Below are positions 6,258-20,523 of a stretch of 64,000 nt of DNA, piece after piece. The stretch comes from Diphasiastrum complanatum (Eukaryota > Streptophyta > Lycopodiopsida > Lycopodiales > Lycopodiaceae): assembly GCA_029204225.1 (NCBI GenBank), contig CM055096.1, forward strand, positions 75,365,521-75,429,520, in the 5' to 3' direction. The notes beneath the pieces were generated by a model. That model saw only the letters and a program-made list of their open reading frames with translations. It did not search any database and was not told the DNA's origin. A program made the position numbers and the translations under genes. Numbering within the stretch: the stretch's first letter is position 1; each line of letters begins with the position of its first letter.

Positions 6258-7509
6258 GATGCCACGAGTAAATGTCAGCTTTTTGATACTCTCGTTACCC
6301 CCACAGCCCTATATGCAGCAAAGGTATGGTGTACAAGCCTTACATCATCTGATTGGGCCAGTATTTCACGACTACAGGTTCTCATGCTATCTCGGATGAT
6401 ACGAGCTAAGCCGTTTGTCCCACATAAGATTATCCTGATAGAGTTCGCAGTTCCACCCCTACAGGTAGCTGTCATCTTTCAGCTTATCCTATATATTCAG
6501 CGTATCATGATGCTACCCACAGGTGAGCAGTGATACATACAGACGGCACTTACCTCGTCACGACACCTTTATGACCAGGGCCATCGACTATCATGGTTCT
6601 CTCAGGCCCCCCAGCTATTGGATGCACTTGGCATCTCTATCACAGACCTTCCATCGGGCACCCTGATTATATCAGACACTTTCTCTATAGAGCATATCTG
6701 AGCCGGACATGGCAGGGACACCTCGGGGTCAAACCCGACTACTACAGGACACACTTTCTGGAGCTAGACATAGTGGGATTTCCAGTTTTGCCACACTATC
6801 TTACCTCAGGATGATCCCATGGGCTTCGATTTCTGTTGGGCCAATTCCGAGTTTCTTCACATCAGTTGGCGATTGAGACCGGATGCTTCCAGGGTACCCC
6901 AACGTGAGGCGCGGCTTTGTCAGTTGTGTTCTTTATCTATGGTTGAGTCCAAGGAGCATTTTGTATTCATATGTCCAATTTATTATGAGATCAGAGGCAG
7001 GTATCACTGCCTTTTTCGTTAGTCACCAGTTACACTGCGGTCCCTTATCTCATACAAGGACCCCCGATGTGTGGCACTGATCCTACGTGATATGTCCCTC
7101 CTGCGACAGGACCTACGTCAGACGGTTCAGCATACTTATCCAGCCACACAGTCTCAGATTACATCCTTCTTCTCTCGAAGAAAATCGCTTCTGATGCAGA
7201 CATGACTGACAGCGATTGCGACGACATTCCCAGACCTAGGATGCAGAGACGACACAGCCTCAGACGACAACGAGAGTTACACGTCCCATTATGCGAGGTC
7301 CTACTTCCCGACGTCGACACCAGAGACATCATTCAGCCATCCATGCAGCAACCATGCCTATCACATCCTTTTTCACGATCCGCATTTGACCCAGGTCTTT
7401 GTTACATTCATATTGCGGTTATAGTACTCATGTTAGTCATTTACAGTCAAGCACATTACTTTTTGTTTCGTACTACTTAAAGTCGTTACACACGCTCCCT
7501 TTGTTACGA
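6258..7509 (+). mobile_element. LINE array copy 2: ORF2 C-terminal half and 3' UTR
   Basis: This is a 5'-incomplete LINE starting at the gypsy LTR. It covers the region after reverse transcriptase (TPTALYAAKVW), the zf-RVT-like zinc motif (CQLCSLSMVESKEHF, about 6927-6975) with YYEIRGRYHCLF, and the C-terminal tail with QSQITSFF (about 7150-7175) and a final PITSFFTIRI before a TGA near 7390. The reading frame shifts several times, so it is dead. Its 3' UTR stops at the CT tract at 7510, short of the acattaataaag signal seen in better copies. Confidence 0.8.
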
Positions 7510-7748
7510 CTCTCTCTCTCTCTCTCTCTCTCTCTCTCTCTCTCTCTCTCTCTCTCTCTCTCTCTCTCTCTCTCTCTCTCTCTCTCTCTCTCTCTCTCTC
7601 TCTCTCTCTCTCTCTCTCTCTCTCTCTCTCTCTCTCTCTCTCTCTCTCTCTCTCTCTCTCTCTCTCTCTCTCTCTCTCTCTCTCTCTCTCTCTCTCTCTC
7701 TCTCTCTCTCTCTCTCTCTCTCTCTCTCTCTCTCTCTCTCTCTCTCTC
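7510..7748 (+). repeat. (CT)n microsatellite, 239 bp
   Basis: A pure TC/CT dinucleotide tract. LINE copy 2 ends at its left edge and copy 3 starts at its right edge. The long open frames across it on both strands are artefacts of the repeat. Confidence 0.97.
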
Positions 7749-8595
7749 AACAATGAATCATATTTTTGATCCTGCTACTAGATGCCAGTTGTTTCACACA
7801 CGGGTGGTTCCAGCAGTGATGTATGCCTCCGAGATCTGGTTGCCAGGACTTTCTCTCCGGGACTGGGCAAGCATTTCCCGCATTCAGGCCACTATGTTGG
7901 GTTGCATGATACGTGCCAAGACTACCACCCCTCATGATATCCTATGTGCTGAGTTTGCTACTCCTCCGATCATCCTTGAGGGCTTTTTCCGACTTATCCT
8001 TTTTCTTCAGCGGATTCAGGAGATTCGTGCCTCTCACCCGGATAGATACATAGTTGTTGCGGTTACTTCTTCACGTGTCCTAGCTGATTCCCATGCCAAG
8101 CTATCCTGGTACCAACAGGCGCCTAATCTCTTACGACATCTGGGCATCTCTATCATGGATCTTCCTCGTGGTACGCATTCATATATCCGAGGCTATTTAT
8201 TCCGTCGATATATGCAGCAGACTTGGAGCTCCCTCCCACCTTCCCGCATTCGACTGAGCTATTACCAGACACACTTCCTCTCTCTAGATCCTTCTGGTTT
8301 GCCATTGTTGCCACTCTATCTCTCACAGCCCCTATCACACGGCCTGCGCTATCGTCTTGGGCAGTTGCGTATTTCCTCTCATCAGCTTGCTATTGAGGCC
8401 GGTCGTGCATGGGATATCCCCCGGGAGCGTCGTCTATGTCACTTGTGCTCGTTGCAAGAGATGGAAGATGAAGCCCATTTCCTCCTCAAATGTCCGTTGT
8501 ATTATGAGATACGCAGGAGGTATTATTGTCTCTTTCCACTTTCACTTTCTTCTTCTACTCCTCCTTCTCTTTCATCTTCCTCTTCTTCCACCTCT
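7749..8595 (+). pseudogene. LINE array copy 3: 5'-truncated ORF2 C-terminal part
   Basis: This begins immediately after the (CT)n tract. One uninterrupted frame runs from the tract to 8715 and encodes ORF2 from just after reverse transcriptase (DPATRCQLFHTRVVPAVMY) through the zinc motif CHLCSLQEMEDEAHFLLKC and YYEIRRRYYCLF near 8530. The sequence then becomes Ser/Thr-rich and TC-rich (8535-8620), where I place the end of this copy. Reverse transcriptase, endonuclease and the usual C-terminal QxxITxFF motif are absent, so it is not functional. It is clearly diverged from copies 2 and 6 (for example WLPGLSLRDWASIS). Confidence 0.8.
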
Positions 8596-8719
8596 TCCTC
8601 GTCTTCATCGATCTCCAATCCTATGAATCTGGCCATTCCTACTGGCCTCCTTCCTCCACAGCTCCCCATACACTCCCTCCAAATCAACCGAACTATTTTC
8701 CTCTTGGGAAGCTGACCAA

Positions 8720-8930
8720 ATGAGAGCTGATTTCCAACTTTTGAAGCAAGAACTTTCACAGTTGAAAGGAGTAGTGGTCTCCTTACTAAAGGAAAAGAAC
8801 TTGTTGCAGTCCAAAGTCGCCTCATTGGAGCAAGTGATCAACACTAAGCAGGTTGCAGCCTCGGAAACGACCACCACCATGATACGAGAGCTTGAGAGTA
8901 AAATTGACCAGCATAAAGATTCATGGGTAG
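8720..8930 (+). pseudogene. LINE ORF1 N-terminal coiled coil (copy 4)
   Basis: An ATG at 8720 opens about 70 codons with leucines and hydrophobics in heptad-like spacing and many K/E/Q (FQLLKQELSQLKGVVVSLLK, VASLEQVI). This is a coiled coil like the trimerisation region of L1-type ORF1 proteins. The coding sense ends near 8930, where the inverted block begins. ORF1 proteins bind the element's RNA; that function is known for L1 and inferred here. The frame running on to 9028 is read-through into the inverted strand. Confidence 0.6.
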
Positions 8931-18678: not shown

Positions 18679-18920
18679 AGGTCGTTTTTGGATTTTCCAG
18701 CCATTTTCCAAGCTGTTTTTGGATTTTCCAGCCAATCTCTAGGTCGTTTTTGGATTTCCCAGCTATTTTAGAAGTCGTTTTTGGATTTTCCAGAATACTT
18801 CTAGGTCATTTTTGAATTTCCCAGCCATTTTCCAAACTGTTTTTGGATTTTCCAGCCTATATCTAGGTCGTTTTTGAATTTCCCAGCCATTTTCCGGGTC
18901 ATTATTGGATTTTCCAGCCA
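18679..18920 (+). repeat. Tandem repeats in LINE 5' leader
   Basis: About seven imperfect units of roughly 33-37 bp, each containing gtttttggattttccagcc or a close variant (gaatttcccagcc) and often ctaggtcg. They lie between the CT tract and the start of ORF1 of LINE copy 8. By position they resemble the promoter-bearing monomers at the 5' ends of some L1 elements; promoter activity is inference. Confidence 0.8.
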
Positions 18921-18938
18921 TACCCTGCTCTTCCTCAG

Positions 18939-19950
18939 TTGCCTTCTTCCTATCTCACGGCTCCAGATTTAGATTTGTGCATAACGCAGCCTAAGAGCTT
19001 CATGCCAAAAAACCCTCGAAAGCGTCCTCACACTTTGGAGACACCGTCCATCGATCATTACGCTTCTGTAGGTGCTCAGCCATCACCGGTTGTCGCTTCA
19101 TCCTCATCACATATCCCCGACACCGCCCACACCTATGCTCGCCACGCCACTCCGGAGAACATCTCCTCCTTGAACTAATTCAGTCTCTAAGCAATTTGCA
19201 AATGTTCTCTCTCAACTTACTAAACTACGTGAGGATTTGCTTACCAAGGCTGCCAAGATTGATGCTCAGCAGGCTGAAATCACTTCTCTTTGTGCGGAGC
19301 TTGGTGCTTTGCAGGGCAACATCATCCCCAACATCACAAGTAAAGTTGAGGATGCTAAAGCTTCTATCGGTAAGATCAACCACCTTGAGCGCCAAATTCA
19401 TGACACTGCTGAGAGTGCTAGTCGCATCCATGTGCTTGAACAACGTCTTCATGAAACTGTGGAACATGTCCAAAAGATCCGTCCTCTCGAGAAAGAGGTC
19501 CGTGAGACCACATCATGGGCTTCTACATTTAAATCCTCCACCACCACTCCATCTTCTGCAGCCCCCTCCTTGGACTCCACGGTACAAGGCGTCCTGGCAT
19601 AACAACAACGCCGAGATGATAAGAAGTTAAACTTGCGGTTGCGGGGTCTTCCTACATAGGGTACAGCATTGCATCAGGTTACATCTTTGTTTACATCGTG
19701 CATGGGACTATCTCTTCCAGGCATCCAGTACGCTTGGCGACTCAAGACTGATCCCAAGGTTTTATTTGTCAAATTCAAAACTCTGCAAGACAGGCAGGCG
19801 GTTCTTCGGGCGCGTCGCACTCTCCGCGGCTCTCACGTTTACATTGATGATAATCTTACTCACTACCAATGGTTATAGCGCAAATCCATCATTCAAGAAG
19901 CGGGTGGTCTTCACAAATGGCAGCCCGCGCTTTGTCTCTAAGCAGCAATA
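18939..19950 (+). pseudogene. LINE ORF1 (Ser/Pro-rich start, coiled coil, RRM-like domain)
   Basis: An ATG at 18939 opens a Ser/Pro-rich N-terminus with a basic PKNPRKRP segment. A frame at 19237-19602 then encodes a long coiled coil (heptads such as INHLERQIHD, IHVLEQRLHE, IRPLEKEVRE), followed by a Ser/Thr linker and, from about 19610, an L1-type RNA-binding domain: LRLRGLP, then PKVLFVKFKTLQDRQAVLRA and GSHVYIDDNLT (to about 19865). ORF1 proteins of L1-like LINEs form trimers on the element RNA. The frame is broken by stops and shifts (TAA near 19177, TAA near 19600, TAG in the RRM near 19659), so no full protein can be made. Confidence 0.75.
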
Positions 19951-19989
19951 GGAAGTTGGGGTATTCGGGCGTGGGAGCGGCCTGATAAC

Positions 19990-20523
19990 CCCTGCTATCG
20001 TCACTTTTGGTTTTTGGAACTGTGGCGGCCTCTCTACCTCTTCTACGGCAGCAGACCTAGATCAATATCTGCGCTCGGGGCACGCTTACTCACCCACTCC
20101 CACCTATCTTTGGTTACCAGTGGATCTTAGGCCCCCGTCCTATGCTTCAGGGCCATCTTCTTCGTGCTTCTGGAGGTGTGGCGTGTCTGTATCCATCTCT
20201 CCATACTCCTTTTGTTCGCATGCTTTCTTTGGACAGTTATGGTAGATTCCTATGGCTTTCTCTCAGTGCTTGTTTTTTGGGATTGGATAGAGATTTGTAT
20301 GTCGCAGTCTGCTACTTTGCTCCTCATACTTCAGTGTCTAGGAGGAGATCCATTTCAGACCCTTGCCGATGATATTGCTCGCCTTTCCATACGTGGTTAC
20401 ATCTTGCTTGCTGGAGACTTTAATGCTCGCACAAGTACCAGCCAAACTCACTTTTATGAGGATGTGCTTTGCCTTCGACCCTTGGATGTCTTATGGTTGC
20501 TAGAGCCTAGAGCTGCTAGATAA
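19990..20523 (+). pseudogene. LINE ORF2 N-terminal APE-type endonuclease (copy 8)
   Basis: Sequence from about 20005 encodes FGFWNCGGLSTSSTAADLDQ, the start of an exonuclease-endonuclease-phosphatase domain. It continues with ASGGVACLYPSLH, DRDLYVAVCYFAPHTS and LLAGDFNARTS (about 20400-20440). GDFN is the conserved active-site loop of LINE AP endonucleases. Two frames are needed (20142-20372 and about 20370-20523) and the copy ends soon after GDFNAR, so it is dead. In intact elements this enzyme nicks the target to start reverse transcription, so its specificity would decide whether CT tracts are the landing site. Confidence 0.75.

What the first reader, a model, noticed from the sequence alone, without database searches (positions are those of the whole stretch)
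6258..20523. Head-to-tail LINE array joined by CT microsatellites: a LINE that may target (CT)n tracts
Six or more LINE pieces lie in the same orientation, each separated from the next by a (CT)n or (CTT)n(CT)n tract (7510, 12446, 14709, 17884, 18601). Copies 3, 5, 6, 7 and 8 all start at the right edge of a CT tract, and copies 4, 6 and 7 end with acattaata(a) running into one. A simple 3' tail would explain the right edges but not the repeated left edges. Insertion into existing CT tracts, with pairing between a CT-ended RNA and the nicked target, explains both and also the uniform orientation. Animal R1-clade elements with microsatellite targets are known (as I recall, Kibi for TC and Koshi for TTC repeats). 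A plant LINE doing this would be notable.
Basis: partly seen in the sequence, partly recalled or inferred. Interest (0 to 1): 0.88.

Follow-up and report, generated by a model that had tools for sequence, protein, structure and literature searches.

The report
Plant LINE that targets CT microsatellites
A very abundant jumping element (a LINE) in a plant genome appears to insert, in one fixed orientation, into CT dinucleotide repeats, which would make it a plant counterpart of the microsatellite-targeting LINEs known in animals.

Summary
The array is real: seven LINE pieces of several subfamilies lie head to tail, and the five cleanly readable 5' edges (B, D, E, F, G) sit flush with a (CT)n tract. 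The same holds widely in the genome. An exact 24-base 3' end occurs 3618 times; in 3124 it is followed by 11 pyrimidines. Among the first 100 listed ends, 16 of 18 neighbours within 6 kb share orientation. Copies truncated just before this end start at (CT)n in 22 places, (GA)n in 0, (AT)n in 1. Five copies have CT at or near the left edge and non-LINE DNA beyond. LINE-free paralogs of two target repeats carry the CT tract at the junction, but the match is mainly one-sided and no allelic empty site was found. Strand-specific insertion into existing (CT)n is well supported; RNA pairing with the nicked AG strand is inferred. Against: 7 of 13 edges in and beside random stretches are not at CT, and 2 of 3 resolved E-type edges are not flush with it. 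Clade unknown. No report of such a plant LINE was found in the named searches. New variant of a known kind.

The parts
598..660 (+). 3' end of another, decayed copy (GACATTAATAAACCTCTCTC)
   Evidence: blastn of the E 3' UTR end 74.6% over 63 bp; sequence
6259..7509 (+). LINE piece A (C-terminal ORF2 and part of the 3' UTR), left side at what looks like a gypsy LTR end, 3'-truncated at GTTACGA|CT
   Evidence: tblastn and blastn; 7 stops, two frames
7510..7748 (+). (CT)n tract
   Evidence: TRF
7749..8535 (+). LINE piece B, 5' edge at the CT tract
8936..9488 (-). inverted endonuclease-region piece within copy C
   Evidence: tblastn, minus strand
9985..12445 (+). LINE copy C, canonical 3' end GGCATGGAAAAGACATTAATAAAG
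12446..12545 (+). (CTT)n(CT)n tail and tract
12546..14708 (+). LINE copy D, 5' edge at CT (protein match from 12596), 3'-truncated
14709..14944 (+). (CT)n/(CCCT)n tract
14945..17883 (+). LINE copy E, 5' edge at CT, 914 open codons with reverse transcriptase (RVT_1), canonical 3' end
17884..18061 (+). (CT)n tract
18062..18602 (+). LINE copy F (short C-terminal piece and 3' UTR), 5' edge at CT
18603..18678 (+). (TTC)n(CT)n tail and tract
18679..18921 (+). 31/62/124-bp tandem repeats at the start of copy G, probably its 5' UTR, flush with CT
18942..20520 (+). LINE copy G, ORF1-like and endonuclease N-terminal part, 3' part missing
   Evidence: tblastn
24060..24340 (-). LINE-free paralog of the target of L075: CACCAT(CT)28 GGCGTGGG..CGCGGCCTGTTTTCTG. 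Right flank matches clearly, left flank only by a short CT-rich stretch
   Evidence: blastn 71% over 131 bp on the right; left 60 bp above 300 of 300 shuffles
34064..34290 (-). LINE-free paralog of the left flank of L075, CT-rich
   Evidence: blastn 77.6% over 223 bp

Best explanation
This is an abundant and recently active LINE lineage that preferentially inserts into pre-existing (CT)n microsatellites in one orientation (sense strand along the CT strand). Most likely step 1 (inferred): the endonuclease nicks the AG strand of the tract. Step 2 (inferred): the freed ..AGAG-3' end pairs with the pyrimidine 3' end of the LINE RNA, after ..ATTAATAAAG; slippage on that end makes the (CTTT)n, (CTT)n or (AAGCTC)n stretch between element and target. 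Step 3 (shown as outcome): 5'-truncated cDNA is joined to the CT strand on the left, often where LINE and tract share CT or C. Because each insertion leaves CT on both sides, later copies insert next to earlier ones, which gives head-to-tail arrays.
For: 3618 exact 3' ends, 3124 followed by 11 pyrimidines. Of 40 scored E-type ends 20 were fetched (16 loci, 4 of them seen on two contigs): all 20 begin CTTT or, in one locus, TTTT; 14 of 16 loci then have a CT run of at least 13 bp (L051/L052 by reading, as a G stops the script there). 5' junctions of copies truncated within 15 nt of GGCATGGAAA: 22 places at CT, 0 at GA, 1 at AT. 5' edges flush with CT: 5 of 5 in the window; 6 of 13 in 20 random 10-kb stretches and their extensions, 3 of 10 inside the stretches alone; expected 0.00033. 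Copies with CT at or, in L055, near the left edge and no LINE match beyond it: L070, L074, L075, L024, L055. LINE-free members of the repeat right of L063 have a CT run at that spot: L026 and L010 short, L025 118 bp; likewise for L075. Arrays: 16 of 18 neighbours within 6 kb among the first 100 listed ends share orientation. The 40 best copies are 98-100% identical over 284 bp.
Against: 7 of 13 edges in and beside the random stretches are not at CT: one follows a (TTCTAA)n tail of another LINE (L028 8216), one an (AT)n run (L016), five show no microsatellite. Inside the stretches alone it is 7 of 10. Of three E-type copies with a readable 5' edge, one is flush with CT (L070), one has (CT)n(AT)n before it (L055), one has no CT (L056). 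CT on the right is short or missing in L037/L043, L041, L060 and L064. Target duplications cannot be seen in a tract. No allelic empty site was found; the LINE-free paralogs are 71-85% alike and match mainly on one side, and the left flank of the LINE at L063 is unknown. Edges were picked by hand. The 22 places may include second haplotypes, and what lies left of their CT was seen in two only (L074, L075). Endonuclease specificity and RNA pairing are untested.
Confidence: 0.83

Rival explanations
1. The CT is only the element's own slipped 3' tail; 5' edges touch it because arrays are tandem duplications or because new copies land at random.
For: Tails do vary ((CTTT)n, (CTT)n, (AAGCTC)n, (TTCTAA)n, (TG)n), so slippage is real. 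Many 5' edges at CT follow another LINE's tail (window, J13, L018, L027).
Against: CT also on the 5' side of copies with no LINE match further left (L070, L074, L075, L024); LINE-free paralogs have the tract; 22 to 0 CT/GA junctions; array members are different subfamilies.
Confidence: 0.06
2. Arrays arise by template jumping: the reverse transcriptase moves from the 5' end of one LINE RNA to the 3' tail of another, giving head-to-tail concatemers in one event.
For: L028 8216: a LINE starts directly after a (TTCTAA)n tail of another; the apparent 5S-LINE chimera in L024 suggests jumping between RNAs.
Against: Does not explain CT at the left of copies with no LINE beyond, or CT tracts in LINE-free paralogs; decay differs between neighbours (A 7 stops in two frames, E none).
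Confidence: 0.13
3. General landing-pad effect: microsatellites are open or unusual DNA and elements land there, as proposed for plant and human transposable elements (Kejnovsky et al. 2013, as cited in a passage of PMC12477314).
For: CT/GA is the commonest microsatellite type counted in the sampled stretches, 22 tracts of at least 16 bp in 200 kb.
Against: Orientation is CT, not GA, at the ends examined, which needs strand-specific targeting or pairing. No unrelated LINE was examined as a control.
Confidence: 0.09
4. Recombination between dispersed CT tracts brought LINE pieces together.
For: CT tracts are abundant and LINE tails end in CT, so exchanges would join pieces in one orientation (inference).
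Against: A 36-base copy in the middle of a tract (L074); a solitary copy with CT on both sides (L070/L047); 5' truncation points at shared CT or C.
Confidence: 0.07

Closest known systems
Microsatellite-targeting non-LTR retrotransposons of animals (Kojima and Fujiwara 2003 and 2004, seen only in a reference list; Kibi, Koshi and Waldo recalled)
   Same: LINE inserted in a simple repeat in fixed orientation (recalled)
   Different: Host is a plant; clade membership not established; thousands of 3' ends; mixed (CTTT)n/(CT)n tails
HERO families that target microsatellites (passage in PMC4640811)
   Same: Microsatellite target
   Different: HERO encodes a restriction-like endonuclease; several close relatives of this LINE carry PF03372
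TRAS and SART telomeric-repeat LINEs (recalled; TRAS1 seen in a reference list)
   Same: Simple tandem-repeat target, fixed orientation
   Different: Target is (CT)n dispersed over chromosomes, not telomeric repeats
Plant L1 and RTE LINEs (recalled)
   Same: LINEs in plants with endonuclease and reverse transcriptase
   Different: No microsatellite target recalled for them; Pfam found no RNase H in the part of E searched

Membership tests
LINE (non-LTR retrotransposon) | Reverse transcriptase of the LINE type | tested here: met
   RVT_1 2.4e-28; best PDB relatives R2 and LINE-1 ORF2
LINE (non-LTR retrotransposon) | 5' truncations and a fixed 3' end | tested here: met
   5' edges at several positions, 3618 identical 3' ends
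Apurinic-type-endonuclease LINEs | PF03372-type endonuclease upstream of the reverse transcriptase | tested here: met
   By homology only: PF03372 in relatives such as P0001, whose endonuclease region matches copy G and the inverted piece in C. Pfam gave no endonuclease hit on copy G itself
Microsatellite-targeting LINEs (functional class) | Same simple repeat on both sides of insertions | tested here: met
   L070/L047, L074, L075, window array; exceptions L056, L028, L016, L015, L012
Microsatellite-targeting LINEs (functional class) | Uninterrupted repeat at the empty site | tested here: inconclusive
   LINE-free paralogs with the tract, matched mainly on one side; no allelic one found
Microsatellite-targeting LINEs (functional class) | Endonuclease cuts the repeat specifically | not testable with these tools
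   Needs biochemistry
R1 clade or Tx1 clade | Reverse transcriptase phylogeny inside the clade | not tested
   No clade reference sequences at hand; the quick tree holds only E and hits
R1 clade | RNase H, reported for the I group including R1 (PMC4640811 passage) | tested here: inconclusive
   No RNase H hit in E 14946-17435; the feature is not stated to be universal

The most novel reading that the evidence does not exclude
A self-perpetuating (CT)n-homing LINE lineage of plants: each insertion keeps CT on both sides and adds a pyrimidine tail, so the element regenerates and enlarges its own target and has built thousands of copies and same-strand arrays. It would be the first microsatellite-specific LINE described in a plant.
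Probability: 0.58. Interest if true: 0.82.

Novelty: new variant of a known kind. Interest (0 to 1): 0.71.

Why it matters
Target-specific LINEs are natural models for site-directed retrotransposition. Those with an apurinic-type endonuclease have mostly been placed in the Tx1 and R1 clades (PMC4640811 passages). A plant lineage with thousands of 3' ends, a 24-base conserved terminus, readable ultra-short copies and LINE-free target paralogs makes it testable how a LINE reads a dinucleotide repeat, whether RNA-target pairing sets orientation, and whether LINEs breed microsatellites. It would also explain the same-strand LINE arrays of this genome.

Tried and rejected
Tail-only slippage, template jumping, landing-pad and recombination models are weighed among the rivals. 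The left edges of A and L058 were first taken as non-CT 5' edges and then dropped, because both look like ends of a similar gypsy LTR (sequence reading). The edges of L054, L057, L059, L068 and L072 were dropped because the LINE continues upstream after internal deletions or rearrangements; L065, L066, L067, L069, L071 and L073 because the copy runs on past the start of E, where it was not traced; interior breaks of the L013 copy and edges running off a stretch likewise. Three of the six CT edges of the random set (J13 twice, J28) lie in extensions fetched to complete cut copies, so they are not a strictly random sample. The target of L075 was first read as having a full empty site in the window; on checking, only the right flank matches clearly, so that claim is weakened and the confidence lowered from 0.86 to 0.83. 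A named clade could not be assigned (one search lacks references). The endonuclease region of P0001 has no convincing PDB relative (best E 0.2). An unrelated LINE as control and an allelic empty site were wanted and not obtained. The CACACACACA control did not complete.
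Full report
Setting. The window is G000:C5:75365521-75429520 of a 1.74-Gb assembly with 5176 contigs. The LEAFY SAM domain is present (7 places, best 4.2e-35; 0 of 14 control genomes), which by general knowledge marks a land plant or close streptophyte. Some small contigs repeat chromosome loci or each other: L037=L043, L038=L044, L040=L047, L051=L052.

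Observation. The LINE pieces and CT tracts are as described. Five of five clean 5' edges in the window lie flush with a CT tract; A (LTR end) and C (complex) were not scored. C, E and F have the canonical 3' end; A and D stop earlier in the 3' UTR and run into CT. A and an E-like copy in L028/L030 stop within a few bases of each other, near GTTACCACATACT, as internal priming at a CT would give; that is inference. Copy E is open over 914 codons. Aligned parts of the pieces are 70-85% identical in DNA.

Abundance. In 20 systematically placed 10-kb stretches (C1-C20 at 15.0 Mb), tblastn finds the LINE in 8 (L012, L013, L015, L016, L018, L024, L027, L028). They hold 22 CT/GA tracts of at least 16 bp (9 CT, 13 GA on the plus strand). 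By my reading, four of the 22 touch a LINE or the 5S-LINE piece, so the tracts are not merely LINE tails. The exact 3' end GGCATGGAAAAGACATTAATAAAG occurs 3618 times and is followed by 11 pyrimidines in 3124 (86%). In the places that are listed, the first ones only, this is mostly (CTTT)n, (CTT)n or (CT)n.

3' side. Of 40 scored E-type ends (1616 candidates) 20 were fetched. They begin CTTT, or TTTT in L040/L047. Of the 16 independent loci 14 then have a CT run of at least 13 bp (L051/L052 by reading). L037/L043 have none and L041 has 6 bp. In five further copies, L060-L064, the runs are 7, 19, 85, 16 and 5 bp.

5' side. In the random stretches and their extensions 6 of 13 edges are at CT (L018, L024, L027, J13 twice, J28; J13 is L031+L013, J28 is L028+L030) and 7 are not. 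Inside the stretches alone it is 3 of 10. The chance rate within 6 bp is 0.00033. E-type copies with a readable edge: L070 at CT, L055 after (CT)n(AT)n, L056 at neither. Copies truncated within 15 nt of GGCATGGAAA: one search gives 78 rows, which I merged to 41 places, 22 of them with the LINE stem GCCTTTTGGCATGG (some may be second haplotypes). With GA there are 9 rows, 2 places, none with the stem. With AT there is 1 place, with the stem. The CA control did not complete. Eight of the 22 join at CT|TATATGCC, where copy E itself reads CT before TATATGCC, and six at C|ATATGCC: microhomology at the 5' junction.

Target before insertion. Copy C4:18.96M reads non-LINE DNA, (CT)n, LINE, tail, (CT)n, other DNA (L070, L047). 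The left flanks of L070, L074, L075, L024 and L055 gave no match to the LINE pieces tested (blastn, E 0.01); those of L074 and L075 border 36-base copies, and L074 has LINE-like sequence further right (sequence reading). L063's right flank belongs to a repeat family. Its members L026, L010 and L025 have no LINE and have a CT run at the same place: short, imperfect runs next to AT repeats in L026 and L010, and 118 bp in L025. The left side of the LINE at L063 is unknown, as an LTR interrupts it. For L075 the right flank has a LINE-free paralog in this window with (CT)28 (24060-24340, minus; 71% over 131 bp); left of that tract only a short CT-rich similarity is seen (above 300 of 300 shuffles). 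L075's left flank has its best paralog elsewhere (34064-34290). These are paralogs, not alleles.

Arrays. Among the first 100 listed 3' ends, all on C1, 18 neighbouring pairs lie within 6 kb (1.1 expected if uniform); 16 share orientation and 2 do not. Within 10 kb it is 16 and 4; between 10 and 200 kb, 11 and 18.

Counter-evidence. L028 8216 starts after a (TTCTAA)n tail of another LINE. One L016 edge follows (AT)n. L016 (other edge), L015, L012, two edges in L028, and L056 show no microsatellite at the 5' edge. Preference is therefore strong but not absolute, or other repeats are used at times.

Relatives and clade. E's protein is 40-46% identical to the ten or so best database proteins, unnamed sequences of which several carry PF03372 besides RVT_1, and matches fern (Adiantum) proteins over 23-41% of its length. 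A quick tree puts E in a 24-row group with these (SH-aLRT 95; midpoint root, no clade references). The named clade is unknown.

Literature. PMC4640811 and PMC5035012 (passages only) list microsatellites among LINE targets; PMC4640811 places most reported target-specific families in early-branched lineages and the Tx1 and R1 clades, the last two with apurinic-type endonuclease. PMC12477314 (passages) cites a general landing-pad effect of microsatellites for plant and human elements. No plant LINE with a microsatellite target appeared in the listings (no papers). The library omits most subscription journals, so this is weak evidence of absence.

Noticed in passing
L024:560-678 (minus): A 5S rRNA-like stretch (RF00001, 45.2 bits) lies between a CT tract and a LINE C-terminal piece: apparently a 5S-LINE chimeric retrocopy inserted at the tract edge.
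   Followed up: partly
8936-9488 (minus): An inverted endonuclease piece inside copy C, as twin priming or a second insertion could give.
   Followed up: no
18679-18921: 31/62/124-bp tandem repeats at the 5' start of copy G, perhaps promoter monomers.
   Followed up: no
LINE 3' end, e.g. 17850-17883: Short hairpin ATGCC-TTTT-GGCAT just before the 3' end, shared between subfamilies; many ultra-short copies stop right after it.
   Followed up: partly
about 3257-6258: gypsy-type reading frames and what looks like an LTR end abutting LINE piece A; a similar LTR end interrupts L058.
   Followed up: partly
24060-24340 and 34064-34290 (minus): Pieces of repeat families with CT tracts that serve as target in L075 and also lie right of L061.
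   Followed up: partly
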